DNA from: Akanthomyces muscarius
Taxonomy: Eukaryota; Ascomycota; Sordariomycetes; Hypocreales; Cordycipitaceae
Length of the DNA: 64,000 nucleotides
Reading direction: 5' to 3'
NCBI RefSeq assembly: GCF_028009165.1
Contig: NC_079241.1
Span: 868,001-932,000 of the forward strand
Both the position numbers and the translations under genes were made by a program. Positions 23,492 to 43,895 of this stretch are shown one piece after another. The notes below the pieces were generated by a model. It was given only the letters and a program-made list of their open reading frames with translations, searched no databases and was not told where the DNA came from. Position 1 is the first letter of the stretch. Every line of letters starts with the position of its first letter.

Positions 23492-26400
23492 TTAAGCAGT
23501 TCCAGAGTCCGACGCTAACTGAGTAGAATGAAATCGTGAGCTCGGGTCATTGAGACCTTGCTCCAGTACATTCCGAAAGACGCTCAGCATATTACTGACA
23601 GTCGCTCGTTCGTAGAGATCAGTCGCGAAATAAACCTGGACTTGGAGGCCATCCTCCTTTTGGTTGACGTAAAACTCAAGATCATCCCTCGTGGTCAGTA
23701 TTGTATCCAAATGTTGCGACTTGACGCCCTCAAGTGTGAACTCGGCCAGATCCTGGGCATTGTTGAATGCAAACACCATCTGGAAAGGCCGTTGGCAAGG
23801 CTTTTCCTTGTCACGTTGTAGCTTCGAGGCGATTTCCGCCCACGGGACGTCTTGGTTTGCAAAAGCGGTGCTGATTGTCGCTTGAACCTGTTGGACCAAG
23901 CTACCAAACGTCTCATTTTCCACCTTGGTTCGAATACAGTGGACATTCACGAATACTCCTATGAGGTTTCGCAGCTCCCAGCGGTCACGGCTCGCGCTTG
24001 GTACTCCTACTACTGCGTCGTTGACTCCGGTGAGGCGATAATTTGTCGCGGCCAGCACAGAGAGCATGACAACAGACAGCGTGACTTCTCTTTCTTTGCA
24101 GAATTGCTGCAGGCGGTCATACAGAGCATCATCTATCTTGAACCCCTCTACCTCTGCACAGCCAGATGGGATGGCAGGCCGTGGTCTATCGCGTAACAGC
24201 TCCGCTGGACGGCTTGCTTCGATGCAACTAGTCCAGTAGTCGAGCTGTCGCTGATACTCCGCAGTCTGAGCCTGTTGTCTCTGCCAAGCGGAGTAATCAC
24301 TATATTGTATTGGCAATGGCTCCAACTGCGCGAGGGGGTCCAGACTACGGATCGCGGCAGAATAGCATGTCGCCAGCTCTCGGCTGAGAACACCAACCGA
24401 CCAACCGTCCGCGATGAGGTTGTGCATGACAATAGACAGCACATGATCGTCTTTACCACAACGATACACAGATAATCTCCAAGCTCGCTCTGTTCCCAGA
24501 CGAAACGAGGTTGTATGATCCCTATGTAACGCATTTTCGAGACTGCATCCACCGTCGGCTTCGGAGGAGAGGTCGAAAACAGAAAGCGCCCTTGCCTGAA
24601 ACGGCTGCACCTGCTGCACATGAACACGGCCATGAGTCGCGAAAGTGGTTCGTAGCGTTTCGTGACGCATTTCCAACGCCATTAGTGCAGTGTTGAGCGC
24701 CGGGAGCTGAAGTGGTCCTTGCAGTCGCACTGCGTATGGCTTCAGGTAGTATGCCGACCCCGGACAGCGTTGTTCCTCTAGCCATATTCGTTCTTGATCC
24801 AGATTTTGCTGAACGGGGCCCGGATCTTTGCGCGTTGGAATATCCCTGCTAACCATCTCGGCCAATGGAACCGCGCTGGCTGCCACCTGCTGCAGCCGAC
24901 GATGGCGGAATATGTCGGCGACCGCGACGCAGAGACCTGCCTTTCGAGACTCTGTGACAACCCTCATCGCTGCAATGGAATCCCCTCCTAGGTGGAAGAA
25001 ACTGTCTCCAAGTCCAATATTCGATGCATCAATGCCAAGCACACGAGCCCAAATGGCTTGCATGCAATACTCGGCGTTGGAAGTGGGCTGCTGCTTCAGA
25101 GATTGTTCAGTTGTCCGTGACTCGGCCAATTGCTTTACAGAAAAGGCCGAACCAACTTCGCGCAGACGACATCGGTGCATTTTGCCAGTTGCTGTTTTGG
25201 GTAGCTCATCCATGAGCAAGAACGCGGCAGGTATCATGTAGCTCGGCAAGTTTTGAGCCAACTTTTCTTCCACCTCGGCAGGAAGAGGGACTATCTTGGC
25301 AGCGGATGTGCTACACTGACACAGGTCCATGAGCCCTTCGTTGGCTTGGAGAAATACCACCAGCGTCGAACATGCATGCTCGCCCCGAGGCAAAACAGCC
25401 TCGGCCACCACTTCGGTTGTCCCAGGTACACAAGCACGCACCCAGTGCTCAACTTCACCCAGGTCGACTCTCTGGCCACGGACCTTGACTTGACCTTCCT
25501 TGCGGTCAATAAATGTCAAGCTTCCATCCTCGTTATATCGCACCAGGTCGCCGGACTTGTACAGTCGCCCGCGGCGCCCAGCGTGACCGGCCCCGCCACG
25601 GAGTAGCCAGGCTGGGGATTTTATAAACGCGGCTGCGGTTTTGTCGGGGTCGTTCAGATAGCCGCGACCAACAAGAGGTCCCTCCAGTAGCAGCTCACCA
25701 ATGCTTCCGGGTGGGAGCAAGATGTTGTGGTTTTCCGGGTCTACGACCCAAGTGACCAGCCCTGCACCCGTGCCAATCCGGACCACCTCTTCCAGACTCG
25801 CAGCCTTGCAATTCATTGTGCTATTCTGCGTACACTCGCTTGAGCCATATTCGTGGATTATTCGTGCTCGTCCCCACCAGCGCTCCACGTCTCCGAGTCT
25901 TAAGGCTTCGCCGCCGAAAATGATGAGCGTCACCTCCGGTATACTAGCCGGTGACAGTAGCCGAGCCAGTGAGGGAGTCATGTCAATCGTGTTTGCACGC
26001 AGATCAATTATACTCTGCTCAGGGTTGTTGTTTCGATCCGACTCCGTCGGGACGCAAAGACAACCCCCTGCTGCCCAAACAAGGAAGAGATTGCTGATTG
26101 ACACGTCGGTGCTGTATGATGCGAAGTCAAATATTCTTGTTTCCGCTGTAAGTTCCAGACGCTGCACGTGATGATGGAGGGCCGAAGAGGCATTCTCGTG
26201 GGTTATCATGATGCCCTTTGGCGTACCCGTGCTACCGGATGTGAAAACAACATAGCAAGTAGACGAGGGAGAGGCTCCTCTGTACTCCGGGTTGTCTCCG
26301 CCATCAAATTCCAACATTGAATCAGGGTCGACGATAACGACGGATTTCGCCGTGGTAACCAATTTCGAGCTCAAAAGATGGTTGGACTCGGAGGATACGA

Positions 26401-27659
26401 TGAGCTTGGCGGTGAGTTGCCGAACGATGGCCTGCAGACGCTGTTCTGGAAGCGACGGGTCGAGTAAAACAAAGGCACCGCCTGCCTTGAGAACGGCCAG
26501 AATGGCGACCGCAGCCCATTTGGACTTGTGAAAGCACAATGGTACCAAGCTGTCGGAATCGACGCCGCGCCTGGATAGCTGGGCAGCCAATGCCGTTGCA
26601 AGCTGATCCAGCGTCTTGTATGTCAAGTTGCCGTCCCACGCGCACACCGCCATGGCTGTGGGCTGCTCTCGAGCCTTGTCTTCAACGATTGTGTGGACGC
26701 ATCGCTGAACTGAAACCGGCACTGTAGCATTCCAATCCCAGAGCAGCTTCAATTCAGATGGCGTGACAATCTCAATTTCTGCCAACAGTCGATCATCGTG
26801 TGGCTGACAGAGCTGCGATGCCACGCGGTCCAGTCGGCTCAGGTACGAGTTGGCGACGGACGACTCTGTTATCCTTGAGTCGAAAAAAGCTGACATGGAA
26901 ATCTTCTTCGCCGATATATAAACGTGAAGTACCAAGCCAAAGTTTTTTAGCATTTGCTGGCGATCCTGCTGTGTTGTGCCGCTGTCATGCTTCTGTAAGA
27001 TAAGGAGGGTTCGGAAGTTGCCTGCTCTCGCCGGATACGGAGACGCATCACCGACCTCGCTTTTTTCATCTCGACATGATTGAGCATGCAGGACCTGCCG
27101 CTGCACTGACTGTAAATATGCAGAAATATTCTGGTTGTAGGACAGCTCAATGCGAACCGGCTTCGACACCAATTTACCTCTTGATTCCTGAGTCGCAGGT
27201 TCGGAAGACTCTGCGGCAAGGTTGACGGCGTAGGTAGCGTGGTTTGAGCTTGTTTTGCGTGCCATCACGAGTGCCCACGCTCCATGAATGACCGTCGCCG
27301 TCATGGCCCAGTCAACTTGGCTCTTAGTGGCATGACCGTGATGGTTGGCAATGCCGCCTGCTTCTAAATGACCGGGTATTGTACTTGTGCCATCATCCTT
27401 CAGTGTATCGAAGCAATCTCTTGAGATGTTCCGCTGCACGGCCTTAGTCCAGACACACTCCTTTGATACAATCGCGGCGTAATTGACGGAGGTAGTGTCG
27501 CTCGTGATCTGTCTAACGCCGTTCGCCGTCTCGCTGGTAATTGAGACTGAGTCGTTCCTGTCAGGCGAAACATTAGCAGTTGAACTTTTGAACTTTTAGG
27601 GGATGTAATAGGCCTCACCGGAGTAGCCCGCAGCCAGTAGGGCTGCCGTCATTGCCCAT
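23492..27659 (-). CDS. Non-ribosomal peptide synthetase, truncated C-A-T-C
   Basis: Gene model: a 41-nt first exon 27659-27619, a 61-bp intron (GTGAGG..GCTAAT..GACAG) and exon 27557-23492; 1368 aa. Residues about 40-260 resemble only the C-terminal half of a condensation domain; no HHxxxDG motif lies there. A domain (about 280-790): FTSGSTGTPKG, YGSSEC, YKSGDL, KVRGQRVDLGE, TATGK, all key residues present. T domain: LGGDSIAAM (about 871). C domain (about 900-1350) ends the protein; its core motif is MHNLIADGW, where the usually catalytic second His is Asn. No thioesterase or reductase. By my alignment the A pocket code is roughly D-V-S-D-I-F-E-Q-N, with no amino acid I recognise. Because the hybrid synthase at 29455-35436 begins with A-T and lacks its own C domain, this terminal C may act between the two proteins. 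Same strand as the hybrid, directly downstream of it. Cytosolic; T domain needs phosphopantetheine. Confidence 0.9.
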
Positions 27660-28615
27660 GTTTGTTTTCGATGCTGTTTCGCGACCAATTATCGAGGCAG
27701 GATAAGTGCAGCAAATCAGTGAGGATGCTTGAACTAGCCCAGCCTCGCGATCTAAACGGCTGCTTGAAATTCAAGGATATAGCAGATATTTCCTACAGGC
27801 CTGTGTTATGAGTTGGTAGAATAACGTTAGAGTCTAGCAGATCTACTAGGGAGGGCACTGTATTATTTATCTAACTATTATAATTAATAAGCCATTAAAT
27901 ATAAAGAGAGTCAGCTGTTAAAGAACTGTTACTTAAAAGGCAGCTTAAAGTATATAACATAGACTTTAAATAATTTATAAATAATTATTCTCTAAGCAAT
28001 TAAGATATCAATTTAAATATGATTAATCTATCGAAATAATCCAAAAAAGATTATCAAATAATAACTAGAATAGCATTAAGTAAAAGTTTCAAGTAATATT
28101 TATTGCCACCCACTTGATAGTTTGTTCTCGTCACCCCTGTCCACTCAGCCCAGCTCATCCCCGCTCGCCCTGTTCCGCAGCTGTGCTAAGAAATGGTATT
28201 GACGTACATAACCAAAGTGCCGGCAATATTGCACCTTGATAGTCGTCTCGGCGGACTGCTCAGTAACCATGTCGCAAATGCCCACCGCTCTCACCTGCGC
28301 TGCACGGTTACGGATCGCTGAAATGTAGTATGATTATGCAGATGTTGATGAAAATCCTTCGACTCTCGATACATCTACGCGCTCATGACAGCACTTCAAG
28401 TCTCAAGTACTGAGACATTGGTGTCGGAGTTACACTGTCACACAGTTTGATAGCTCAGCCCGATCTTTGCAAGCCACAAGCCCCTTCATGCTGCAAGTTG
28501 CGTTGCAGCTAGTCAACTAGTTCCTAGTATGCTTGGCTGGTGGACGATGCCAAAGCACGGCGCTGAGACATTAGATGACCGTATCTGCACGGCTCAGCCT
28601 CAGATTCACAACGCG
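27660..28615. promoter_or_regulatory. NRPS upstream region with A+T-rich core
   Basis: Upstream of the NRPS start. Positions about 27840-28110 are almost only A and T, with words such as TATCTAACTAT and TTAATTAATAAG; this is listed separately. The remainder has normal composition and no gene. Confidence 0.4.
27840..28110. repeat. A+T-rich island, RIP-like decayed sequence
   Basis: About 270 bp made of A/T with few C or G, in contrast with the sequence on both sides. Such islands in filamentous ascomycetes usually come from repeat-induced point mutation of old transposons. No transposon protein can be read. It lies between the NRPS and the hybrid synthase. Confidence 0.65.
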
Positions 28616-28870
28616 GACATGCATCTCCGAGCTTCAAACCATGCTCGGTAACGATAGTGTTGCGGCGCTGGCGCTGAACGATTGCATTACATTGCTTTCA
28701 TGGCCCAACGCGGGGTCCGCAGCCGGGACATGCAGCTACGGGCTGCAAGCCATGAGCGGTGACGAGTGCGCCGAGACACGGGCGTTGAGCTATTGCATGC
28801 CGCAATTAATATAGCATGGCCCGGGGTCACAACCGCGACATGCAGCTACGAGCTACTGGTACAAGCCATG
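28616..28870. repeat. Degenerate tandem repeat of about 110 bp
   Basis: Unit starts are visible at 28616, 28727 and 28837 (spacing 111 and 110 bp), each beginning GACATGCA(T/G)CT(C/A)CG(A/G)GC and followed by a CAA(A/G)CCATG word. The first two units also share a run with CATGGCCC(A/G) near their ends. The copies differ mostly by transitions. A short open frame across them is taken as chance. Confidence 0.7.
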
Positions 28871-29454: not shown

Positions 29455-32400
29455 CTAGTTGTTCTCGGGGACGGCTGCCCAAACGCTGTCAACTGTAGCC
29501 AGTCTCTTTCCTGCAGAATCCACCATTTCTCCTCTCATGATAGTTCTGCGGTTCTCAAATCTGTCGATCCAAGTTGTTACACAGACGGCTTCTTCTGTTA
29601 CCGGCACAGGTGCAAGAAACTGAACGTTCAGGGACGCAGTGACACTGACAGTGGTAAACGCGGACCCCGACTTACCGAGAGCTGAGTTGAGCTCATTGAC
29701 GATAGAAAGACTCTCATCAAGGATCGTTGAAATAAACCCGCCGTGAATGATGCCTTCAAAGCCCGACGTACCTACTCCGAAAGCAACGAGCGTTGCTGCA
29801 CGGAGGATGGGCCGTGTGGGATCTTCAACATGGTCCGGGTTCGACGGACGGAAGAGGGACAGCATGTGTCGTAGAGGAGGCTGCTTGGTACCTGCATCAT
29901 ACGTAGCCTGTACGTTCTTGTTTGATATGTCGACATAGCTGTGAGAGAGGGTCTCTCCTAGAAATTGCTCATGTCGCGAGCTGGCTGGGTTGACGCAGTG
30001 TGGAAGAAATGTAACAGCTTGGCCACACCCAGGGATCGGGCCACCTGTTGGTGAGAATTCGTGGATAATCTGGAAGCACCACGGGATGCTTTCAAAAAAA
30101 TCAACCGCAGACATGAAGCGATCCAGGCGCGAGTTCGGAGGATAAAGGCCGAGGGAGGGACACAGGATACGGTGGAGCGGAGACAGGGCAACGGGGTAGT
30201 TTATAGACGCGCTTGGGGTTGGAATGATCGCCCGAGGCCCGTCAATATGGGCATCCTTTGACATGTGCCCGCTGTTCTTATTTCCCGAGCCATTTACCCC
30301 AGCTTGCCCCAGCCTGATATCCAGAGATGATGCGGAGGTCAGCTCTGAAGATTGGCAGCAAACAGACTCGTTGCTGGAAGATGAACCATCATCTCTTTTT
30401 TGTCGTGATAACGATAGAAGATGGTCGCATAAACTCCGCAAGTTGGGGTATATAGAAGTGATGTTAATGGGCAGAGCAATGTCGGTGACAGCCTCGGCGA
30501 GAGCCACCAATTGGCTGCGCAACTGAGGCTCCATCAACGAGTCAATGCCAATTTTTTGCCAGATCAAGTCCATGTCGACGTTATTTGGCGACTCGATTCC
30601 AACCAAAGTTGCCACTATTTTTCTCATCCTGTCTTGAAGAAAGGTGGCATGCTGCTCGGCAGGAGAATTCCTGAACAGACTGCCGAGATCATCGTCTAGG
30701 CCTGGCTGGGACACAATCATGTCGTGGCTCGCGTCCACCGAACTAGCCTCGTTTGTACCGTTTCGCGATTTTGGTACTGGAGTCCGTGTTGGAGATAAGA
30801 CGCGCTTCCGCTGAAAAGCATATGTCGGCAACTCGACCCTCCTGTAGCCGAAAGGTTTGAAGTACCTGGCCCAGTCTATAGAAATTCCCAGCCGATGCAG
30901 TTCTGCAAGGCAGTTCTGTATACATAAGGTGCCACTTTTGCGCGTAACAAGAGAAGGTAGCCAAGCAGTATGCCACTTTTGATCGACGCCGAGACACGCT
31001 GCACCCATCCCAGAGAGCACAGGTTTTGCCCCGAGCTCAATAAAAACATCCATGTCGATGCTTGACATAGTTTGAATTGCGTCGCTGAAACGAACTGCTT
31101 CTCTTACTTGGGCGACCCAGTAGCGAGCTGTTTCGAGCAAGCCCGGTTCTGCCAACCGCCCGGTGAGGCAGCTGACAACAGGGATGTGCGGAGGATGAAA
31201 GTCGACCTCCGCCAAAATAGCTTCGAAGTCTGAGAGCATTCCATCCATATGCTGAGAGTGAAAAGCGTGGGATACGTCAAGTGTCTTGACTTTGCGGCCT
31301 AACCCGGCCATGCATGCAGCCACTGGACCAGTGGCGCTGACATCGCCTGATATCACAATCTGGGACGGCGTATTGTAGGCAGCGATTCCCACCCGACCAC
31401 TGTACTTCGTGTCGCCAATGGCTGCAACTACCTCACTGGCGCTGGCCTGGAGCGACATCATGTTGCCGCTGGGGGGCAGGCTGTTCATCAACCTGGAGCG
31501 CGCTTGCACGAGCCGGCAAGCACAGGCAATATCGAAGACGCCTGCGGCGTATGCGGCGGCATACTCGCCGAGGCTATGGCCAAGGACAGCCTGGGGTTCG
31601 ACACCCCAGCTTCGCCACAAGCTCAAGAGCGCCACTTGCAACGTGAAAATGGCAGGCTGGGCAAAATCAGTGCGATTGAGGAGGGCGACGTCTTCTGCGT
31701 TGTCCGCATCCGCCCACATGATCTCGAGCAGTGGTCGTTCTAGGAAGAAGTGCTCGGCCGTTTTCTCTAGAGACTCACGAAAGACTGGATAGGTGCGACT
31801 GAGGTCGAGGCCCATCCCCGGTATCTGGCTACCTTGGCCTGTGAAGAGCATAGCCAGGTGCCTGCGATCGGTGCCAGCTCTAGTACTCGCTGCCGCTGCC
31901 ACGCCGTGGGGTCCAGCTGCCGCCGCCAGCTGGCCCAAAAGACTGTCTCTGCTGTCAGTTACAAAAACAAGGCGGTGTTTGAAGTGCGTTCGGGTCGTTG
32001 CTAGTGAATAGGCTAGATCACCCAATTGCTTCTGGCCAAAATTGTCACTATTGCTCAGGTGACGGTGCAGCCTTTCGGCCTGCTGACGCATGGCTGCAGC
32101 TGTATTTCCAGACACAAGGAAGGGCAGCGAGTTCATATGTGGCAGTGCACTATCGGTTTCCGCCGACGTTATGATATTTGCTGCTTCTTCGATAACCACG
32201 TGTGCGTTTGTGCCTCCGATTCCAAATGAGCTGACGCCAGCGCGGCGGCGTCGGTCCCCTTCACGCCTCGGCCATGGTATCTCCTCCTGTACCAGAGCCA
32301 TGCCTGCTTCTTGCCAATTCAATGCGCCGGTAGGCATGCTAGCATGCAGGGTTCGGGGCAGCGTTTCATGCTGCATTGCCAAGACGACCTTCAAGACACC

Positions 32401-35400
32401 CACGAGGCCCGCAGCCGCCTGTGTGTGGCCGATGTTAGACTTGGCCGAGCCGAGCCATAGAGGTTCAGTATTTGCATCTGTGCTGCGGCTGCTGCCGAAG
32501 ACTTGTGCCAAGGCGGCACCCTCGATCGGATCTCCCAGCTTCGTTCCCGTGCCGTGGGCTTCCACGTAGTCAACGTCGCTTGGCTGCAGACATGCGGCCA
32601 TGAGTGCGCGTTGTATGACTTGTTGCTGTGCAGTGCCGCTAGGTGTCGTCAAGCCGGCGCTGCGGCCCCCGTGATTGACAGCACTGCCACGCACGACAGC
32701 GTGGATTGCATCGCCGTCGCGATGCGCATCCGATAGTCTCTTGAGCACGACGGCCGCAGAACCTTCTGCCCAGCCTGTCCCGTCCGTATCTTCCGAAAAG
32801 GCCCTGCATCGTCCGTCCCGCGATATACCTCCCAGTCGGCTGAACTCGACGTGCAGCCCAGGAGTCTGCATCAGTGTGGTTCCGCAGGACACGGCCATGT
32901 CACACTCCCCGCGGCGCAGCGCTGTACAAGCGAGGTCAGTCACGACTAGAGAGGAAGAACACGCCGTGTCAATTGTCATGGACGGGCCCCCAAGACCAAG
33001 TACATGGGACACACGGCCGGACACGGTGGCACCGGCGCTACCCGTGGCGGTATACCCGTTCAGATCTGACAGAGGCCGTGCGAAGTTTTGATGGGCTGGC
33101 ATGTTGCTCACACCGACGTAAACGCCAGTTCGGCTTGCCGACAGCTTCTCTAGCGGGTAGCCAGCTCGCTCGAAGCCTTCCCAGCATGTTTCCAGTGTCA
33201 GCAGCTGCAACGGGTCCATCTCCCGCGCCTCCTGGGGCGAGATGCCGAATAGAGTACTGTCGAATGTGTCGATGCTGCGGAGAAATCCACCACGCATGCA
33301 TTCTGACTTTTGGCGGATGTCTAGCCCAGCATCGCAGAGTGTAGCAGCAGTCCACCGGTCCGCAGGCACCTCAGCAATGGCATCACCGCTAGAATGTAGA
33401 AGCTGCCAGAACTCTTCAGGAGTTTCAACGCCACCAGGAAGCCGGCACGCCATGGATACAATGGCTATGCTTTCCTCTTCGATGACAGAGGGACCGCAAC
33501 GTGGGGAGTCGTTCTGCTTTCCGCCAGAAGTATCTTTTCCGCCCAAGTATGCTGCTAGTGACTCGATGGAGTAGTGCTCAAAGAGCTTCGCAACTGGGAT
33601 GGGCCGATTCAAAAGCTTCTCCAGCTGAGCTTGGACCTTAACAATGTGCAGAGAGTTTCCGCCAACATGAAAAAAATTGTCCTTGACACTGAGTCGGGCG
33701 CCGCCCAAAACTCGAGACCAAACAGCTAGGATATGGCGCTCAAGCGCCACGATAGATGCCCCAGCGGGTTTCGAAACTGGATCCCGCTCGCTTTGAATGG
33801 GGTTTCCTGCCATCGGGTCTGGTAGAGCGTTGCGATTGATTTTGTTGTTCAACGTTGTGGGAAAGGCCTCCAAATGCACAAAGAACGCTGGCATCATGTA
33901 GGACGGCAGAAGTCGGTCGATCCATTTGCGTACAGCTGCATATTTGGGGCATGTTGTCCCGTTCGCCGGATCTGCCCTCTCTGGAGAATTACCTCGCCAG
34001 GTAAAGTACGCGATTAACTGATCTGTGCGGCAAACCACCACAGCCGCGGTGACTTGCGGATGACTTGCTAGCGCTGCCTCAACATCGCCTAGTTCGATTC
34101 TGTATCCTCGGACTTTGATCTGGCTATCTGCACGGCCGGCGATACTCAGTCTCTCTGGTGCGAGGAAGCAGCCAATATCCCCGGTACGGTATATCCGCCC
34201 TTGAGAGAACGGGCTCTCAAGGAAGCTGGCCTGTGTGAGTCCCGGGTTTTTATGATAGCCGCGAGCAAGTCCAGAACCGCCGATATAGAGCTCTCCATAT
34301 TGGCCTTGCGGGACCGGTCTCAACTGTTCATCTAAAATGTGAAGCTGGTAGTTGGCTAGTGCCTTGCCAATGATGATGTCTTCGCCTGGTTGCACTCGCC
34401 AGGCACTAGCCCATACAGTAGCCTCGGTTGGCCCATACAAATTCCACAATGAGCCACCGCACTCAAGCAGCCGCGCTGCAAGTCTCGCCGACATGGCTTC
34501 CCCTCCGCAGAGCAGTTTGTCCAAGGCAGGGTCGCCTTTCCAGCCCGAGTCGAGCAGCATCTGCCAGTATGCGGGCGTTGCCTGCATCATGGTGACGGCG
34601 TGTTGCTCCAACAGACCACGCACAGCTTTGGCATCTTTGATCTGTTGTCCTTGACCAATGACTGTTGCTGCTCCGCAGAGTAGCGGCATGAAGAGCTCCA
34701 GCGCTGCAATATCGAAGGTGGCAGTCGTCACGGCTAGCATGCGGTCCGCCTCCTCACAATTGAGCACCTCCTTCATGGATAGGAGCAAATTACACAAGGC
34801 TCCGTGGCTGACCTCCACCCCCTTTGGTTTTCCCGTCGAGCCAGATGTGAATATCACGTAGGCAAGGTCTTCTGGGTGTCTATTGAGTTCGAGATTGATG
34901 CTCTCCGCCTGTGTGCTTGCCGTATTGAACGTGGTTTCATCGACGCTTAGAATGACACCTGCCCAAGACTTGAATGCACCCAGCATACTGGCAGTGACGA
35001 CCAGTATCTTTGGTGCCGCGACATCCAGCGTGTGCCTGATGCGTTGCGATGGGAATGTTGCATCGAGGGGTACATAGGCGGCTCCCGTCTTGAGCACTGC
35101 GAAGAGCGTCACAACGAGACTGGCAGATCGGTCAAGGGCAACGCCAACCAAATCGTGCTGCCCTATGCCCAGGCCCACCAAGACCCTGGCAAACCGATTA
35201 GCGGCCTCGTTGAGCTCTTGATACGTGAGCGTTGTGTTGCCACAGATAAGTGCAAGATTGGTCGGATATTTTCTTGCAGCATCTTCGAGAAGATAATGCA
35301 GGCAGTGACCCAGCTTGGTGGGGTTATCCGTGCCGTTCAAATTGTTGATGGTTGTTGAACCGCTTCGTGTAAGCCGGGCGTCCATATCTAGCAGCCCGTT

Positions 35401-35436
35401 GGCGAGCAATTGTGCTTTTGATGTCAAATGTGTCAT
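29455..35436 (-). CDS. NRPS-PKS hybrid, A-T-KS-AT-ACP-hotdog thioesterase
   Basis: Single exon, 1993 aa, from a clear ATG at 35436. Domains by position: A (about 45-540), IFTSGSTGKPKG near 195, NLYGPTEATVW, YRTGD, KVRGYRIELGD; T, HVGGNSLHIV near 592; KS (about 660-1090), active Cys in DTACSSS near 825, His in EAHGTGT and SNIGHTQ; AT (about 1190-1500), GHSLGEY near 1287 and HAFH near 1392, the usual malonyl-CoA mark; ACP, GIDSLM near 1630; hotdog (4HBT/PaaI-type) thioesterase (about 1800-1990), GIIHGGFISTILDE near 1897. No KR, DH, ER, MT or C domain was found. By my alignment the A pocket reads D-I-L-Q-L-G-L-V-W, close to the known glycine code. Predicted chemistry: load glycine or a glycine-like unit such as guanidinoacetate, add one malonyl unit, release a 3-oxo product by hydrolysis. 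The A-T-KS-AT start is like SwnK-type hybrids, but the release domain differs. It shares a 0.9-kb divergent promoter with the aminotransferase. Confidence 0.95.
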   Translation of the reverse strand: MTHLTSKAQLLANGLLDMDARLTRSGSTTINNLNGTDNPTKLGHCLHYLLEDAARKYPTNLALICGNTTLTYQELNEAANRFARVLVGLGIGQHDLVGVALDRSASLVVTLFAVLKTGAAYVPLDATFPSQRIRHTLDVAAPKILVVTASMLGAFKSWAGVILSVDETTFNTASTQAESINLELNRHPEDLAYVIFTSGSTGKPKGVEVSHGALCNLLLSMKEVLNCEEADRMLAVTTATFDIAALELFMPLLCGAATVIGQGQQIKDAKAVRGLLEQHAVTMMQATPAYWQMLLDSGWKGDPALDKLLCGGEAMSARLAARLLECGGSLWNLYGPTEATVWASAWRVQPGEDIIIGKALANYQLHILDEQLRPVPQGQYGELYIGGSGLARGYHKNPGLTQASFLESPFSQGRIYRTGDIGCFLAPERLSIAGRADSQIKVRGYRIELGDVEAALASHPQVTAAVVVCRTDQLIAYFTWRGNSPERADPANGTTCPKYAAVRKWIDRLLPSYMMPAFFVHLEAFPTTLNNKINRNALPDPMAGNPIQSERDPVSKPAGASIVALERHILAVWSRVLGGARLSVKDNFFHVGGNSLHIVKVQAQLEKLLNRPIPVAKLFEHYSIESLAAYLGGKDTSGGKQNDSPRCGPSVIEEESIAIVSMACRLPGGVETPEEFWQLLHSSGDAIAEVPADRWTAATLCDAGLDIRQKSECMRGGFLRSIDTFDSTLFGISPQEAREMDPLQLLTLETCWEGFERAGYPLEKLSASRTGVYVGVSNMPAHQNFARPLSDLNGYTATGSAGATVSGRVSHVLGLGGPSMTIDTACSSSLVVTDLACTALRRGECDMAVSCGTTLMQTPGLHVEFSRLGGISRDGRCRAFSEDTDGTGWAEGSAAVVLKRLSDAHRDGDAIHAVVRGSAVNHGGRSAGLTTPSGTAQQQVIQRALMAACLQPSDVDYVEAHGTGTKLGDPIEGAALAQVFGSSRSTDANTEPLWLGSAKSNIGHTQAAAGLVGVLKVVLAMQHETLPRTLHASMPTGALNWQEAGMALVQEEIPWPRREGDRRRRAGVSSFGIGGTNAHVVIEEAANIITSAETDSALPHMNSLPFLVSGNTAAAMRQQAERLHRHLSNSDNFGQKQLGDLAYSLATTRTHFKHRLVFVTDSRDSLLGQLAAAAGPHGVAAAASTRAGTDRRHLAMLFTGQGSQIPGMGLDLSRTYPVFRESLEKTAEHFFLERPLLEIMWADADNAEDVALLNRTDFAQPAIFTLQVALLSLWRSWGVEPQAVLGHSLGEYAAAYAAGVFDIACACRLVQARSRLMNSLPPSGNMMSLQASASEVVAAIGDTKYSGRVGIAAYNTPSQIVISGDVSATGPVAACMAGLGRKVKTLDVSHAFHSQHMDGMLSDFEAILAEVDFHPPHIPVVSCLTGRLAEPGLLETARYWVAQVREAVRFSDAIQTMSSIDMDVFIELGAKPVLSGMGAACLGVDQKWHTAWLPSLVTRKSGTLCIQNCLAELHRLGISIDWARYFKPFGYRRVELPTYAFQRKRVLSPTRTPVPKSRNGTNEASSVDASHDMIVSQPGLDDDLGSLFRNSPAEQHATFLQDRMRKIVATLVGIESPNNVDMDLIWQKIGIDSLMEPQLRSQLVALAEAVTDIALPINITSIYPNLRSLCDHLLSLSRQKRDDGSSSSNESVCCQSSELTSASSLDIRLGQAGVNGSGNKNSGHMSKDAHIDGPRAIIPTPSASINYPVALSPLHRILCPSLGLYPPNSRLDRFMSAVDFFESIPWCFQIIHEFSPTGGPIPGCGQAVTFLPHCVNPASSRHEQFLGETLSHSYVDISNKNVQATYDAGTKQPPLRHMLSLFRPSNPDHVEDPTRPILRAATLVAFGVGTSGFEGIIHGGFISTILDESLSIVNELNSALGKSGSAFTTVSVTASLNVQFLAPVPVTEEAVCVTTWIDRFENRRTIMRGEMVDSAGKRLATVDSVWAAVPENN

Positions 35437-36365: not shown

Positions 36366-37781
36366 ATGGACAGCGCAAAGAAAAAGACAAACGGCGTCCA
36401 TGCGAATGCTACCCACGATGAGTCCCACGTCCTACACAACTCACTCAATTCGAAACCCCCCACGGTCGCGTCTGCCACGGGTTCTTACATGACAATGTCG
36501 ACGGGCCAGCGCGTGCTAGATGCCTGCACGGGTGCCGCTGTTGCTATTATTGGTCACAATGATCCCGACGTGAAGGCCGCCGTTATGGAGCAAATGTCCA
36601 AAGTCTGCTACACGCACACAGTTGCTTTTACCACAGTTGCTGCAGAGGAGTTGGCTGACGATATCCTTGGTGGAAACCCCTACGGACTAAGCCGTGCATT
36701 TTTTGTCTGCTCAGGCAGCGAGGCAATGGATTCGGCTCTCAAGCTCGCCCGTCAGTACTATGTTGAGATTGGTCAACCTGGCCGAACTCATATCGTGGCT
36801 AGAGAGCGAGCGTATCATGGCAATACAGTTGCGGCCATGAGTGTTGGGAGCCATGTTTCCAGAAGGGCCCCGTTCGAGAAGGCCTTGATGCTCGAAAATG
36901 TGAGCTTCGTGAGTCCAACATACGCCTACCGGCATCAGCACCCCAATGAGTCCGAAGAAGGGTATGCCTCAAGGCTAGTTCTGGAGCTAGATGAGCATTT
37001 TCAGGCTCATGGTCCAGAAAACGTCATGGCCTTCGTCTCCGAGCCCGTCGGCGGTGCAACAGCTGGATGCCTCACGGCGCCCAAAGGGTACTATCAAGGC
37101 GTCCGTCGTCTATGTGACCAGTATGGCATTTTACTCATCTTTGACGAAGTGATGTGCGGCAGCGGAAGAACGGGCACATATTTTGCCTTTGAACAAGAGG
37201 GTGAGGGTGTGTACCCCGACCTCATTACCATGGGCAAGGGACTTGGCGGAGGCTTCGCCCCAATGGGTGCAGTTCTTGTTCATGACAAAATCATCAAAGG
37301 CTTCCAAAAGGGAAGCGCTTGGTTCGTGCATTCCCATACCTATCAAGCCCATGGAGTAGGTTGCGCTGCCGCTCTCGCCGTTCAAAAGGTGCTTCGCCGG
37401 GACCGTCTTATAGAGCGGAGTGCGACCAAGGGCAATTGGCTCCGAGGCGCACTCGTGCGTACATTCGGTGATCGCAAGTACGTCGGTGAGATTCGCGGCA
37501 AGGGATTGTTCTGGGGCATCGAGTTTGTGAAGGACAAAGCGACCAAAGAGCCGTTTGAGCCTAGCCTCCGCTTTACTTGGCGCATAGTAGATGAGGCACT
37601 ACGACGGGGACTCTCTGTCTACCCAGGAGCCGGGACCGCCGACGGATTCAAAGGTGACCACATCATTATCGCTCCAGCATACAACATGTCGGACGACGAG
37701 TTTGATGAAATGCTACGTTTGCTGAAGGATACATACGAAGTCGTCGAGATGGAAGTAATAGCTCTTGTTGATGCCGTATAA
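36366..37781 (+). CDS. Class III PLP-dependent aminotransferase
   Basis: Single exon, 471 aa from ATG 36366 (an upstream in-frame TTG is not used). Class III (omega/acetylornithine-type) fold: VLDACTGAAVAIIGHNDP at the start of the domain, SGSEAMDSALKLARQYY (phosphate binding), RERAYHGNT, the Asp in LLIFDEVMCGSGRTG and the PLP lysine K291 in TMGKGLGGGFAPMGAV. All are conserved. The family moves amino groups between omega- or beta-amino compounds and a keto acid. In context it could aminate the 3-oxo product (or the derived ketone) of the hybrid synthase, or supply an omega-amino building block. Cytosolic; no targeting peptide seen. It is divergent from the hybrid and points toward the amidinotransferase. 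Confidence 0.92.
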   Translation: MDSAKKKTNGVHANATHDESHVLHNSLNSKPPTVASATGSYMTMSTGQRVLDACTGAAVAIIGHNDPDVKAAVMEQMSKVCYTHTVAFTTVAAEELADDILGGNPYGLSRAFFVCSGSEAMDSALKLARQYYVEIGQPGRTHIVARERAYHGNTVAAMSVGSHVSRRAPFEKALMLENVSFVSPTYAYRHQHPNESEEGYASRLVLELDEHFQAHGPENVMAFVSEPVGGATAGCLTAPKGYYQGVRRLCDQYGILLIFDEVMCGSGRTGTYFAFEQEGEGVYPDLITMGKGLGGGFAPMGAVLVHDKIIKGFQKGSAWFVHSHTYQAHGVGCAAALAVQKVLRRDRLIERSATKGNWLRGALVRTFGDRKYVGEIRGKGLFWGIEFVKDKATKEPFEPSLRFTWRIVDEALRRGLSVYPGAGTADGFKGDHIIIAPAYNMSDDEFDEMLRLLKDTYEVVEMEVIALVDAV

Positions 37782-38508: not shown

Positions 38509-38585
38509 ATGTGTGTGCGGAGAGTGGCCCGATCCTTCGACCCCCACGCACGCCACGGGAGCTCGACGTTAACAATGTACAGCTT
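38509..38585 (+). repeat. Diverged direct repeat, copy A
   Basis: Shares ATGT(G/A)TGTG(C/T)GGAGAG(T/C)GG and GGAGCTCGAC(G/A)T words in the same order with 38673-38739. The differences are mostly transitions. No coding content. Confidence 0.6.
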
Positions 38586-38672
38586 GGGCTACGGACGCCA
38601 TGGTTCAATCTGGAGATCCGTAACTGTAGTAACTCCGCAGAACTGCATGTAGTATCAGCTTGATCTGTTCCG

Positions 38673-38739
38673 ATGTATGTGTGGAGAGCGGCCGATCTGT
38701 CGCCTCTTACAGGAGCTCGACATCGACAACGCACAGCTC
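38673..38739 (+). repeat. Diverged direct repeat, copy B
   Basis: Second copy of the segment at 38509-38585, same orientation, about 164 bp further on. It is slightly shorter between the two conserved words. Confidence 0.6.
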
Positions 38740-38994
38740 CCCTCCCGGGGCACTAGGGGAGGCTGTCAATGTCTCAAACCTGTGCATAGAGGGCCAATGC
38801 AGTGTGGTAAGACTTACAGCGGCACGAGGCTTGCGCAATTGAGCTTACGTACTAGTATTTCAATAAAATCTCTCTAGGTAATACAAATGCGGAGGTATGA
38901 CATGACCGTGCATTTATTAGGAGCATGCAGTATATTGGAGGTTGGGCAGAGATGCAGTGAACGCTCCTCCCACAGAGAGTTGGAGGGGCTGGGG

Positions 38995-39440
38995 AGAGAC
39001 CACGTTTCTTAGCTTTCGGCTTAGTCTTACAACAGCTATATTCATAGCTATAATACTTTCTATAAATAATAGTTAAATCTAACTTTAAGAAGAGTATTTA
39101 AGTCTTTTATTATAAATATATTAAATACTTTATTTTTAATCTTAAAATAATAAGTAACTAGCGTTAATTAGTTAGTTAAAAATAACTTATCTAACTATAG
39201 ATTAATATTAAAAGTGTTTTTATTATTTATTTATATGATAACTAGCTACTTCTAATTAGTTATACTATTAAATAAATATATTTAAACATATTTTTAAATA
39301 GCTATTAAACTATCGATATATATAATCAATTATAAAATAGTTATCTTTTATTTAGTAAAGTTAAGTACTTTATAGATAGTAAATAGCACTATATAATGTT
39401 AATAGATCAACTTAAAGAAAGGTGATATAAATAATCAAGT
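38995..39440. repeat. Strong A+T-rich island, RIP-like
   Basis: About 440 bp almost free of G and C (long runs of TA, TAA, TTAGTTAG). Words such as TATCTAACTAT recur in the island at 27.84-28.11 kb. No transposon reading frame survives. It lies just upstream of the amidinotransferase promoter. Confidence 0.75.
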
Positions 39441-39560
39441 GGCCGAATCTGTCGTCATCTTAAGCATTTAAACTAAGACAGTATAGAGAAGCTTGATCAA
39501 CATATAAAGCAGTAGACCACCCTTATCATACGACTGAACTGTAGATATCGTGACTTCTCA

Positions 39561-39616
39561 CACTCTTCGCATTTACACTCTTCGCATTTACACTCTTTGC
39601 ATTTACACTCTTCACA
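39561..39616 (+). repeat. 15-bp tandem repeat in amidinotransferase leader
   Basis: Three consecutive units of CACTCTTCGCATTTA (39561, 39576, 39591; the third has TTTG for TTCG), then a partial unit. It ends about 60 bp before the chosen start codon at 39678, so it is in the promoter or 5' leader. Confidence 0.8.
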
Positions 39617-39677
39617 CTCTTCAGATTCTTTACACCCTTTTACAACAGAATACCTTGACCCCCTTCAGACACAGGCC

Positions 39678-40742
39678 ATGACTGTCGACGAGGTAGTGCT
39701 CATCTCAGCAGATGATGAGTGGTCTCCCTTGAAGTCTGTCATCGTCGGACGGGCAGAGGATTCCGCGTTTCCTGCTGAGCCGCGGCATCTTATTTCGGCC
39801 GTCATGCCAGAAGGCCACTGGGATGAGTTCAAACCCAAGAATCCCTTCCCCGCATTTATCGTCGAGAATGCTCAAAAAGAACTTGACAATTTCGCCTCTG
39901 TTCTGGAGAAGCTCGGCGTCAAAGTTTATCGCCCTGCGAAAGTAGACTGGGTCAAGACAGGCGGCTACACGGGCTCCATGTCGCGAGATGCCTTGATGAC
40001 TGTCGGTAACACGCTGATTGAGTCTGCCTTTGCCTTTAGCTGCCGTCGCCACGAAGTAGATCTGGGCTACTCAGACATTTTGAAGGAACTGAGTAGCAAG
40101 GGTTCTTCGACCATTGTCAGGGCGCCGCAACTCATCGGACGTGACACCATCTACGATGGAGTAGCCGAGTCAATCAGTGCTGGGCAAGGTCGTGGTTCCA
40201 CAATATCAATAAACAATTCTCGGGTTGCCTTTGACACTGCCGATTTTATGCGCTTCGGCAAGACCATCATTGGCCAGCTCAGCCATGTAACGAACGAACG
40301 CGGCGTTGCCTACGTACGATCCGTGGTACCTGAAGGCTACACCGTTGAGATCTTGGACACGGGAATGCGGCCTGGGAACATGCACATCGACACCACCATT
40401 CTTCCGCTACGCCATGGGCTGATGATTTACTCGCCAAAATACACCAACGAGGACAGCATCCGTCGGCATGCCATTTTTAAAGACTGGGAGTTGCACGCAT
40501 ACCCCTTTGAGCCAAAGTACGATCCCAATGGCCCGCCCCCTTACACCTGTTCGCCATGGCTGGTCCTGAATGGACTAAGCCTGGACGAAAAGCGCATCTT
40601 TGTCGAGGAGAAAAACATCGAGTTCGCAGCTTGGGTTCGGGACAAATTTGGAATGGAACCGATAATGCTTCCTTTTCAACATGTCAATTGCCTCGGAGGA
40701 TCCTTCCACTGCGCGACAGTAGACCTGGTCAGGGCATCTTGA
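39678..40742 (+). CDS. Arginine:glycine amidinotransferase (AGAT-like)
   Basis: Single exon, 354 aa from ATG 39678; upstream in-frame codons read through the 15-bp repeat and are unlikely to be translated. Amidinotransferase fold: SPLKSVIVGRAED at the N-terminus, SRDALMTVGNTLIES, FDTADFMRFG (Asp186/Asp189, one being the catalytic acid), GNMHIDTT (His236) and LGGSFHCAT (Cys345, the amidino-carrying nucleophile). The catalytic Cys/His/Asp set is thus complete. The residue before the catalytic His is Met, as in AGAT. Family knowledge: Arg + Gly gives guanidinoacetate + ornithine; bacterial relatives (CyrA, StrB1, SxtG) feed natural products. There is no clear mitochondrial presequence. Its place beside a synthase with a glycine-type A domain argues that it makes guanidinoacetate for the cluster, or amidinates a later amine. 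Confidence 0.93.
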   Translation: MTVDEVVLISADDEWSPLKSVIVGRAEDSAFPAEPRHLISAVMPEGHWDEFKPKNPFPAFIVENAQKELDNFASVLEKLGVKVYRPAKVDWVKTGGYTGSMSRDALMTVGNTLIESAFAFSCRRHEVDLGYSDILKELSSKGSSTIVRAPQLIGRDTIYDGVAESISAGQGRGSTISINNSRVAFDTADFMRFGKTIIGQLSHVTNERGVAYVRSVVPEGYTVEILDTGMRPGNMHIDTTILPLRHGLMIYSPKYTNEDSIRRHAIFKDWELHAYPFEPKYDPNGPPPYTCSPWLVLNGLSLDEKRIFVEEKNIEFAAWVRDKFGMEPIMLPFQHVNCLGGSFHCATVDLVRAS

Positions 40743-40950
40743 CCGATCAATGGATAGCTAGTTGCCGACAATGGCTCTTTAGTTAATAGAGTAGCGCTAA
40801 TTCATTGTGTAACCATTCAAATCGCGCCAGTAAATACTTGAGCAATATACTATTGCCGGAGCGATGGCTGGTAGACAGTGAAATTATTTTGGATCCTTTG
40901 CCCGTAGCCAATGGTGACCTGGCAGTACAGAGAGACGCCGCAAAGTAGCA

Positions 40951-42530
40951 TCATGAAGCCAATATTGTAAAACACCAGCCTGGCCCCATACGATCAATCA
41001 TGACTTGTAAGATGGCCAGAAATGCGGCCGCAAGCGCGCACCGCACGACATTTGCAGCGGCTGAAGCGGTGGAAGCTTGATGAGTGTTCAGGTCGGTGTT
41101 GAGCGCGCCAAGGGCCTAGACCACTAGCTTTTGTCTTAACTAAATAAAGTTGCAAGCTTACAACGAACAGGCCAGTGGCTGAAAACCCGACAAATACCTG
41201 CATAATTAAAGGAACTGCTACATGCTGGGCAAGTTAGAGCCGCAGCCGAGAATCATTATGGCGACACTTACAGTCTTTGCTTGGATGGCCCAGCCAAAGC
41301 CGAATGTGGCCATTGATGCCATGCTGACAAGTGAAAAGCTACTGCGAAGACGCGCAGCCTCGAGAGGAAAGGTAGGGTCGGTTTTAGACTTGGCCTGCTC
41401 TGTAGTTATGCCGTGGCGCTTGGCGGCTTGTGCATAATCGCGATCGAGGATTTTGCCTGAGACCGTTTTAGTGATGGGAAACATCGAATGAGAGAATAAA
41501 CTTACCTCAGACAAGTGTATTGACGAAGCATGCCACTCCGAATGGAACATATATCAGACCGGCTTCTAGGTCACGATAGCCATAGACGTCGATGAACAAA
41601 GACGACAATGATGCCTGAATGCAGCAGTATACGGTATATGCGATCGCATCACAGACGAGGACGTTGGACAACCGAAATGATAGTAAGATTTTAAGAGATG
41701 CCAAGGGATTGGGCAAGGTGATTTCTTTCTTTTTGATCGTCTCCTCTACCTTCTCTTGGTATCTCTCTTGCTTGCCCATGGGAATCAGGCTACGGTAGAT
41801 GCCGTTGGGTGGGATGCTGCCATTGCCGACAACGGATCGAGACGTCTCCGGCAGCGAAATGACGAGGCGGACAAGGCAAAATTCTCCTAGGATTGCAAGT
41901 AGCCAGAAAATCCACTGCAAACCTAATTTTGCAGCCATGATACCGCCGAGGATGGGGCCAATCGGCCGTGCAACGTTTGGTCTGCTCCAGGTCAGTGATG
42001 CGACAGCTAGTATACATAGGATGTACTCACCCAACAAGCATTAGCCCGACGTAGGACCCGCGTTCATCTTCAGTCGTAATGTCGACAATGATACCATATC
42101 CAAAAGAGATAGTCCCAGAGCTGCCTGCACTTTGAAGCATCTGCAGGACTAGGAGGGCAGGAAAGCTGCTCTGCAGCACCAAACCAATATTTGCTACCAA
42201 ATAAATGGACAAGGCTACAATATATACTAGACGCCGACCATACTTATCTGCGGCAGTGCCGAGCAGAGCCGGAACGATGCCGGAGACGTCCATGTAAGTG
42301 GTAACGGCCAGGTTGACCAGCTCCACAGTGGCGTTGAGCCCCTTGGCGATGGAGTTGATGGCAGGGTAAAAGATGAAGCTGCTCATCGGTGAGAACATGC
42401 CCGCAAAGGCGGTCAGGAAAATGATCCACCGTCGCTGGTTGACGGTGAAGACTGTGAATGGAGGCGGTGTTGGCTCGGGAGCATTCTCGTCCGGGGCGGG
42501 GGTGACCGTGTCTGTGCTTGCCTCCTTCAT
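40951..42530 (-). pseudogene. DHA1-type MFS exporter, apparently broken
   Basis: Exons 42530-42031, 41981-41506, 41456-41272, 41224-41162 and 41115-40951 fit together in phase with short introns. They encode an MFS drug:proton antiporter of the DHA1 group: a cytosolic N-tail, GTAADKYGRR (loop 2-3 signature), RPIGPILGG (TM5 motif), SGKILDRDY and ALGALNTDLNT. Two defects: codon 325 is an in-frame TGA (41509-41507) directly before the GTAAGT donor where relatives have a Ser-Gly-Lys segment, and after GPGWCFTI the frame stops at 40951 while a TM12-like stretch (MMLLCGVSLYC) continues in another frame. I infer a decayed gene, though sequence errors could explain either defect. An intact version would be the obvious exporter of the cluster product. 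Confidence 0.68.
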
Positions 42531-42809
42531 GCTGAACGCTCACGGCTCTGAAAAATATATAGAGTGATTTATAAAATTGCAGAGCTATCTGATAGCTTGA
42601 AACAGAGGCGGAAACAAAAAGATGAAGAGGGGTAAAATGTGAAGGTTCTTTGTGTGTTTTGATCACCTCTCTAGCCGCAGTGACTCCGCTCAGACGCAGT
42701 CTGCACGCCCAATTGACAAACGGCTTTTTTGTGTAACTGATGAACCAGATCGCCCACTTTTATTATATTTGTATGTTTATCAGAGGTATAATTTCTTTTC
42801 GGCTTTGTC

Positions 42810-43895
42810 CTAATTCTTCGCGCACCAGTCCTCTACGTGTCGCTTGAAAGCTTGTAGGTAGTTGTGAAACGTCGTCGTCGAACACCATGCCACATGAGGC
42901 GTGACCAAAAGATTCAGCCTGCCGGCCTCGGCTGCGCCCACCTTGAGCAGCGGGCTATCGCCCTCTCGCCAGAATTTCCCGGCGCCGGACGGTTCTTGCA
43001 GGAAGACATCGGTGGCCGCGCCGCCAATGGAGCCCGCTCGCAAAGCTTCGAGGAGCGCCGTCTCGTCGACGATGCCGCCTCGCGAGACATTGATGAGCAG
43101 CGCGTGTCGAGGCATGGCTTGCAGTTCTTGCGTGGATATCAGTCCTAGAGTTTCAGGCCCACGAGGTAAGCAGAGAACAATCACAGAGCTCTGTGCGAGA
43201 ACTTGTGCAAATGGCGCTCTGCCCTCGCTTGCAGAGGCGCCTTTTCGCGCTGCGATGAGTACGCTCATTCCTAAGGAACGACAGAATTCCGCGATACGAC
43301 GGCCTGTCCGGTAAAGATTTGGTTATTTAGAATACGTCCTTTTTCTTCTTTCTCTTGCGAAGACACAGTCTTGAAACTTACCAATTGCGCCATAGCCCAC
43401 AATACCAACCGTCTCATCCCTGCAAGTCATCGGAGGACTCCCCGAGGGGTCGTTGAGTACCGAGGTCAGGGCAAACGTCTTGGTCCATTCATCTGTCTCC
43501 AAAACTGTGTTGTGAAGCTGCACCAAGTGTCGGCGGCTTGCAAAGTACATAGCCAAGACGTGATTGGCCACAGTCTCTGTGTTGGCATTGGGGCAGTTGA
43601 CTACCTTGATGCCTCGGACCGCCGCCAAGTCCGTGTCGATGCAGTCTGTGCCGGTGGCTATAGCCACAATCAATTGGAGCTTGGGAGTCACACTTGCAGC
43701 TAATGTCGGGCCTTTGAGCGGTGTGACGGTCGTGGCGACAATGGTAGCGTCTTGCACGGCGTTTTGAATGGCTTCCGTGGATGAGACTTGCGTAGTGAGA
43801 TTTACAAGCTCGTACGTGTGTGGCCCGGGGAGCTGGAGCAGGCTCGGCGGAATTGGGACATTCCAAGCGTCCAAAGCCACGATCTTGTGATGCAT
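42810..43895 (-). CDS. D-isomer-specific 2-hydroxyacid dehydrogenase
   Basis: Two exons, 43895-43382 and 43303-42810 (335 aa), with a 78-bp intron splitting the NAD-binding motif GYGAIG/RR (GxGxxG). Catalytic residues are Arg in NVSRGG, Glu in FLQEP and His in TPHVAW, all present. The family (glyoxylate/hydroxypyruvate reductase, phosphoglycerate dehydrogenase-like) reduces 2-oxo acids to D-2-hydroxy acids with NAD(P)H in the cytosol. No PTS1 (ends WCAKN). It sits next to the MFS gene on the same strand. It could be a cluster member that supplies a hydroxy or oxo acid (for example glyoxylate-glycine balance), or simply the neighbouring gene. Confidence 0.88.

What the first reader, a model, noticed from the sequence alone, without database searches (positions are those of the whole stretch)
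23492..43895. Fungal cluster pairing an amidinotransferase with an NRPS-PKS hybrid
Seen: within 20 kb, a complete AGAT-like enzyme, an A-T-KS-AT-ACP-hotdog synthase with a glycine-type A pocket, a separate A-T-C NRPS, a class III aminotransferase, an exporter gene and a 2-hydroxyacid dehydrogenase. Known: bacterial CyrA/CyrB join an amidinotransferase to an NRPS-PKS to start a guanidino alkaloid, and the fungal route to guanidinoacetate in fusaoctaxin B uses oxidative enzymes instead of AGAT. Inference: this could be a fungal guanidino-polyketide or guanidino-peptide system built on AGAT. I know of no described fungal cluster with this set.
Basis: partly seen in the sequence, partly recalled or inferred. 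Interest (0 to 1): 0.9.

Follow-up and report, generated by a model that had tools for sequence, protein, structure and literature searches.

The report
Fungal amidinotransferase-linked NRPS-PKS gene cluster
An insect-pathogenic fungus carries an uncharacterised gene cluster in which a two-protein peptide-polyketide assembly line sits beside an enzyme that adds guanidine-type groups, so it probably makes an unknown small guanidine-containing molecule.

Summary
The window is Akanthomyces muscarius (synthase = LMH87_005210), and every named gene is present. The cluster looks real: NRPS and synthase lie together in other fungi with conserved substrate codes.

(1) The synthase is not CyrB-like: it belongs to the fungal SwnK family, lacks KR, has lost the thioester reductase that near relatives keep, and ends in a hotdog thioesterase. 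(2) AGAT-like enzymes are common in fungi; this genome has four open copies. The cluster copy forms a clade whose only other named member is from Cordyceps fumosorosea, where NRPS and synthase orthologues report the same contig. AGAT was not seen on four other pair-carrying contigs, but that search cannot exclude it. (3) The clade keeps the catalytic residues but changes four pocket positions, so glycine as acceptor is not supported. (4) The NRPS condensation domain has HN instead of HH in all seven closest rows, the window's own included.

Best reading: an unknown guanidino amino-acid/polyketide hybrid. No product is known; ten literature searches listed no described fungal counterpart.

The parts
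23492..27659 (-). NRPS (P0001): degenerate N-terminal remnant, A1, T, C; probable ATG at 27659, first intron inferred
25181..26683 (-). A1 domain of the NRPS, code DVSDIGEQNK
23501..24796 (-). C domain of the NRPS; motif HNLIADG in place of HHxxxDG (Asn at about 24419-24421)
29455..35436 (-). SwnK-family synthase A2-T-KS-AT-ACP-hotdog (P0002; deposited as LMH87_005210)
33823..35289 (-). A2 domain of the synthase, code DILQLGLVWK
31972..33474 (-). KS domain; Cys and both His motifs present
30994..31848 (-). AT domain, GHSLGE and HAFHS motifs (malonyl-type; motif reading recalled)
29506..29754 (-). hotdog (4HBT) release domain with HGG and Asp
36366..37781 (+). class III aminotransferase (471 aa)
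39678..40742 (+). AGAT-like amidinotransferase (354 aa) with altered acceptor pocket
40850..42530 (-). MFS transporter in several exons; 3' end approximate
42810..43895 (-). D-isomer-specific 2-hydroxyacid dehydrogenase in two exons
21761..22567 (-). fructosamine-kinase-like gene next to the NRPS; membership in the cluster not known

Best explanation
This is a biosynthetic gene cluster of Akanthomyces muscarius for an unknown small guanidino-bearing hybrid of one or two amino acids and one or more acetate units. Shown from sequence: P0002 has an A domain whose code reads glycine-like, a T domain, KS, malonyl-type AT and ACP with their motifs, and no KR, DH, ER or R. Inferred: it loads a small amino acid and extends it by malonate to a beta-keto thioester, which the hotdog domain releases. 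P0001 ends in a C domain and P0002 begins with an A domain, so the two can be read in order as A1-T-C | A2-T-KS-AT-ACP-TE, with A1 loading a second amino acid. The C domain lacks the usual catalytic His in all close orthologues, so either it condenses without it or it has become a docking domain. The amidinotransferase (catalytic residues kept, acceptor pocket changed) moves the amidino group of arginine to an amine of a precursor, a carrier-bound unit or the released product. The class III aminotransferase and the 2-hydroxyacid dehydrogenase make or trim a building block or the beta-ketone, and the MFS protein exports. The order of the tailoring steps is inference.
For: Domains and motifs. 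A1 code DVSD[IV]GEQNK in 9 of 15 NRPS rows compared (the window's gene counted twice, as P0001 and P0243); A2 code DILQLG[LM][VI]WK in 9 of 10 members of the synthase clade, the tenth being cut off at its N-terminus. The AGAT copy forms a clade with C. fumosorosea P0004 (86%) and unnamed P0005 (71%), SH-aLRT 99, apart from the genome's other three open copies (60-62%). A. lecanii RCEF 1005 and C. javanica show only other AGAT copies among the 120 listed, and no named row among the 120 listed synthases. Catalytic Asp, His and Cys positions kept.
Against: None of the 120 listed AGAT rows (of 735) reports the contig length of the A. lecanii (44019), Pseudogymnoascus (29142), T. barbatum (48224) or metagenome (26637) synthase contigs, so the pair may work without AGAT there. 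This is not decisive: rows stand for 90%-identity clusters (P0003 for eight sequences) and show only their longest contig, contigs are short, and gene models may be missing. The contig shared in C. fumosorosea is 1.65 Mb long, so co-location there is not proof of clustering. AGAT-like genes are common in fungi, and the three other open copies of this genome sit beside no NRPS or PKS. The HN motif speaks against an ordinary condensation step. T. barbatum's NRPS differs: it has a second A domain after C, and its C motif is HH. No expression or chemical data.
Confidence: 0.5

Rival explanations
1. The NRPS-synthase pair is the cluster; the amidinotransferase is an unrelated neighbour or a late accessory, and the core product has no guanidine.
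For: AGAT seen with the pair only in A. muscarius and C. fumosorosea, although the pair is seen in five named fungi and one metagenome contig. Same A1 code (V for I) in T. barbatum and A. lecanii, where AGAT was not seen. Four open AGAT-like copies in this genome.
Against: In the synthase tree A. lecanii and Pseudogymnoascus branch between A. muscarius and C. fumosorosea, and the AGAT copies of the latter two form one clade, so the simplest history has AGAT already in the shared ancestor of these clusters. The clade has its own pocket changes, as expected of a specialised enzyme.
Confidence: 0.25
2. CyrA/CyrB-like system: AGAT makes guanidinoacetate, which the synthase's glycine-type A domain loads as starter.
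For: Glycine-type code (DILQLGLVWK; bacterial glycine domains with DILQLGMIWK are reported in PMC12283262, passage), and an amidinotransferase nearby.
Against: Positions equal to human N300, R322 and M353 are changed. The synthase belongs to the SwnK family and lacks KR. Nearly the same A2 code occurs in the SwnK-type protein P0172 and in relatives where AGAT was not seen. A1-T-C is left unexplained.
Confidence: 0.1
3. SwnK-like indolizidine pathway: A2 activates pipecolate and the product is an amidinated indolizidine or piperidine ketone.
For: Synthase is about 52-56% identical over A-T-KS-AT to SwnK-type proteins. Swainsonine precursors include pipecolic acid, and some SWN clusters include a putative aminotransferase, SwnA (PMC5473758, passages).
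Against: No KR and no R here, and none of the PhyH (SwnH-type) or NmrA (SwnN-type) hits of the genome lies in the window: 0 of 9 and 0 of 49 (six-frame search, counts are lower bounds; that PhyH covers SwnH is recalled). The A code reads as glycine-type.
Confidence: 0.15

Closest known systems
SwnK swainsonine synthase and its paralogues (SWN clusters; PMC5473758)
   Same: A-T-KS-AT core, about 52-56% identity; some close relatives of P0002 still carry the SwnK-type thioester reductase
   Different: No KR, no R, hotdog release instead; partnered by an A-T-C NRPS and an amidinotransferase; no PhyH or NmrA hit in the window
AnATPKS, FnsA and other fungal A-T-PKS hybrids (named in PMC9606254 and PMC8582187, passages)
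   Same: Single NRPS module feeding a PKS module in one protein
   Different: FnsA has DH, KR and TE domains; neither is reported with an amidinotransferase in the passages read; no row so named in the ten-row clade
CyrA/CyrB of cylindrospermopsin and SxtG of saxitoxin (bacterial; recalled, SxtG also by PDB match)
   Same: AGAT-fold amidinotransferase beside a PKS-type synthase
   Different: Different synthase family; acceptor pocket of the fungal enzyme differs from human AGAT at four positions; fungal cluster adds an A-T-C NRPS
Fusaoctaxin cluster of Fusarium (NRPS9/NRPS5; PMC10967133, passages)
   Same: Fungal product family with a guanidinoacetyl starter; small loading NRPS protein
   Different: Route without amidinotransferase according to the finding; in the review the word occurs once, in a reference title; no PKS module in the passages read
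HsvA amidinotransferase (PDB 5wpi)
   Same: Best PDB match of the cluster enzyme (3.2e-47)
   Different: Its bacterial source and polyamine acceptor are recalled; nothing shows that the fungal enzyme shares the acceptor

Membership tests
SWN (swainsonine) cluster | SwnK with A-T-KS-AT-KR-ACP-R | tested here: not met
   A-T-KS-AT core met; KR and R absent, hotdog present (domain list from PMC5473758)
SWN (swainsonine) cluster | SwnH1/H2 dioxygenases and SwnN/SwnR reductases nearby | tested here: not met
   0 of 9 PhyH and 0 of 49 NmrA genome hits lie in the window; SwnN is NmrA-like, PhyH for SwnH is recalled, SwnR was not sought by a family of its own
SwnK protein family | relatedness over A-T-KS-AT | tested here: met
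   54% identity over 77% of the query to SwnK-like protein 1 (P0172); placed among such rows in the KS-AT tree
AGAT-type amidinotransferase | catalytic Asp, His and Cys (human D254, H303, C407; roles recalled, mapped through) | tested here: met
   D186, H236, C345 in the query; D in 122 of 123 rows, H in 123 of 123, C in 121 of 123
AGAT sensu stricto (glycine acceptor) | human-like acceptor pocket (N300, R322, M353, W186) | tested here: not met
   G, Y, T, F here; in the other 120 rows R322 is R in 107, M353 is M in 115, W186 is W in 120, N300 is N in only 4; functional meaning recalled
AGAT sensu stricto (glycine acceptor) | guanidinoacetate as product | not testable with these tools
   needs an enzyme assay
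CyrA/CyrB cylindrospermopsin system | CyrB-type synthase beside the amidinotransferase | tested here: not met
   synthase is SwnK-family without KR/DH; CyrB architecture recalled, no CyrB sequence was compared
Canonical condensation domain | HHxxxDG motif | tested here: not met
   HNLIADG; second residue is Asn in 7 of 61 aligned stretches, exactly the 7 closest rows (one of them the window's own gene); His in 53, Gln in 1
Hotdog (4HBT) thioesterase | 4HBT profile match with HGG and Asp | tested here: met
   PF03061 at 6.7e-7 here and 1.3e-8 to 6.2e-6 in five of six SwnK-type relatives scanned (P0126, P0129, P0130, P0132, P0145; none in P0172); H, G, G, D invariant in 11 rows. The fold model was too poor to use (pLDDT 36.7)

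The most novel reading that the evidence does not exclude
The A-T-C* protein is a modification platform, not an elongation module. Its C domain has lost condensation and become a docking domain, and the amidinotransferase, whose carboxylate-side pocket has opened up, transfers the amidino group to an amino acid while it is bound as a thioester on the carrier. The modified unit is then handed to a SwnK-type synthase. This would be on-line amidination, which I know of in no NRPS system (recalled, not searched).
Probability: 0.1. Interest if true: 0.8.

Novelty: new variant of a known kind. Interest (0 to 1): 0.5.

Why it matters
Guanidino natural products of fungi are few (recalled), and the case named in the finding, fusaoctaxin B, is said there to reach its guanidino group without an amidinotransferase. 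A conserved fungal cluster that joins a specialised amidinotransferase to a SwnK-type synthase and an NRPS with an altered condensation domain would open a new route to fungal guanidine alkaloids. It would also show how thioester-reductase release gives way to hotdog release within one enzyme family. The host is an insect pathogen, so the product may bear on insect infection; nothing here tests that.

Tried and rejected
A first regex for the A-domain codes misread several rows and was replaced by an alignment. The regex labels R/H in the synthase tree were wrong for the hotdog domain; only the topology is used, not the label counts. A first mapping of the AGAT catalytic Asp was off and was corrected. 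Both trees used treekit's quick method with SH-aLRT only. The AlphaFold model of the hotdog region (11 rows) had pLDDT 36.7 and was not searched or used; the second fold job was not used. PDB phmmer of the same region gave only weak hits (best 0.021, THEM4). Two papers (PMC1169963, PMC7166049) were not held, so AGAT residue roles and AnATPKS details are recalled or second-hand.

Considered and rejected: chance proximity of all genes (the NRPS-synthase pair recurs in other fungi); a plain SWN cluster; glycine-AGAT plus CyrB. The three other open AGAT copies of the genome were examined for neighbours: no NRPS/PKS gene was seen within about 4-5 kb on either side, and the nearest Condensation or ketosynthase hit on the same contig lies more than 600 kb away.

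Purpureocillium takamizusanense also has an NRPS and a SwnK-type protein on one contig (P0256, P0145; 5812699), but with other codes and outside the ten-row clade; it was not counted as the pair.

Papers: PMC5473758, PMC9606254, PMC8582187, PMC10967133 and PMC12283262 were seen as passages only; all others only as search listings with the start of the abstract. Listings were cut (15 of 10,197; 15 of 26) and by duplicates (16 of 17).
Full report
What it is. The window is base 868001-932000 of contig C1 of a 36.19 Mb genome. The synthase matches LMH87_005210 of Akanthomyces muscarius at 100% on a contig of the same length as C1. Motifs of KS, AT, ACP, T and both A domains are present (their meaning is textbook knowledge).

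The synthase. Its relatives are SwnK-type fungal NRPS-PKS hybrids, about 52-56% identical over A-T-KS-AT (7776 hits, 120 listed). A KS-AT tree of P0002 and 114 of the 120 listed rows (left out: P0123, the same gene; three bacterial rows; two without the KS motif) puts it in a ten-row clade, SH-aLRT 97, with A. lecanii, Pseudogymnoascus, C. fumosorosea, two Purpureocillium species, Trichoderma barbatum and unnamed rows. In A. lecanii and P. lavendulum Pfam finds a thioester-reductase domain between ACP and hotdog; the alignment shows it in Pseudogymnoascus and C. fumosorosea too. The YxxxK motif is kept in A. lecanii and Pseudogymnoascus and lost in C. fumosorosea and P. lavendulum. In A. muscarius and two metagenome relatives the domain is gone; T. 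barbatum has none either. The window's protein therefore has the hotdog domain as its only recognisable release domain. In C. fumosorosea the His of HGG reads Ala, and the deposited model is cut short.

The substrate codes. A2 is DILQLGLVWK. Bacterial glycine domains reported with DILQLGMIWK (PMC12283262, passage) make glycine the plain reading. The SwnK-like protein P0172 has DILQLGMVWK, and swainsonine precursors include pipecolic acid (PMC5473758, passages), so the reading is not safe. A1 is DVSDIGEQNK, with V for I in A. lecanii and T. barbatum: 9 of 15 rows compared, the window's gene counted twice. The one paper searched for it did not hold it (DVSD: 0 occurrences). Its two acidic positions would suit a cationic side chain, which is inference; one of them also occurs in rows whose first letters differ, such as the enniatin synthase row P0255.

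The pair as one assembly line. NRPS and synthase have consecutive gene numbers in A. lecanii and Pseudogymnoascus and share a contig length in C. fumosorosea, T. barbatum and a metagenome contig. P0001 ends in C and P0002 begins with A, so A1-T-C | A2-T-KS-AT-ACP-hotdog is a natural order (inference). But the C domain reads HNLIADG. Of 61 aligned C-domain stretches in 45 of the 120 listed NRPS rows, 7 have Asn there, exactly the 7 closest (one is the window's own gene); 53 have His and 1 has Gln. So the loss is conserved, not a sequencing slip, and either the step works without the His or the domain has another task. T. barbatum does not share it: its NRPS row has a second A domain after C and an HH motif.

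The amidinotransferase. AGAT-like proteins are common in fungi: 735 hits, 120 listed. The genome holds four open copies and a broken one. In a tree of the 120 rows plus the genome's other three open copies, the cluster enzyme groups with C. fumosorosea P0004 and unnamed P0005 (SH-aLRT 99), and two of the other copies have an A. lecanii RCEF 1005 protein as nearest row, the third an unnamed row. All three clade members have F, G, Y/W and T where human AGAT has W186, N300, R322 and M353; among the other 120 rows these are W in 120, N in 4 (H in 85), R in 107 and M in 115. Two of the genome's other copies also have Y at R322. The catalytic positions are kept. That these human residues face the acceptor or its carboxylate is recalled. 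The enzyme thus looks specialised, and glycine is not a safe acceptor.

Is the amidinotransferase part of the cluster? For: its place 1.9 kb from the aminotransferase and 4.2 kb from the synthase start; the shared contig in C. fumosorosea; and that A. lecanii RCEF 1005, C. javanica and C. militaris show only other AGAT copies and no named row among the 120 listed synthases. Against: no listed AGAT row reports the contig lengths of the A. lecanii LLEC1, Pseudogymnoascus, T. barbatum or metagenome pairs. Because A. lecanii and Pseudogymnoascus branch between A. muscarius and C. fumosorosea in the synthase tree, an ancestral AGAT with losses or missed gene models is the simplest history. Monosporascus CRB-9-2 has another AGAT-like gene eight gene numbers from an NRPS on one contig (DL770_003654 and 003646), so such neighbourhoods recur.

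Literature. Ten full-text searches (five with amidinotransferase as a term) listed no paper on a fungal cluster with an amidinotransferase and an NRPS-PKS. Some listings were cut, and subscription journals are mostly not held.

Verdict. A real and probably coherent cluster of unknown product; a new variant of the SwnK-type NRPS-PKS kind with an amidinotransferase; guanidino product likely but unproven.

Noticed in passing
L018 (G000:C11:2163000-2172500), AGAT-like 4613-5707 and 2647-3531: Another open AGAT-like gene of this genome lies next to a phosphatidylserine-decarboxylase-family gene (PF02666); possible two-gene amidination-decarboxylation unit.
   Followed up: partly
window 29455-30000; P0123: The deposited model LMH87_005210 leaves the reading frame inside the hotdog domain; a run at the codons for GKS may have been taken for an intron start (inference). 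The deposited C. fumosorosea model P0128 skips the same stretch.
   Followed up: partly
G000:C11:186217-187029: A broken AGAT-like copy with stop codons, about 62 kb from a ketosynthase hit. Not read through.
   Followed up: no
window 21761-22567: Fructosamine-kinase-like gene directly beside the NRPS; cluster member or border gene unknown.
   Followed up: no
P0057 and P0311 (Monosporascus sp. CRB-9-2): AGAT-like gene DL770_003654 and NRPS DL770_003646 on one contig of 148509 bases: a second fungal AGAT-NRPS neighbourhood, not in the cluster AGAT clade.
   Followed up: partly
P0128 (C. fumosorosea synthase): HGG of the hotdog domain reads AGG and the reductase lacks YxxxK, so both release domains may be impaired there.
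   Followed up: no
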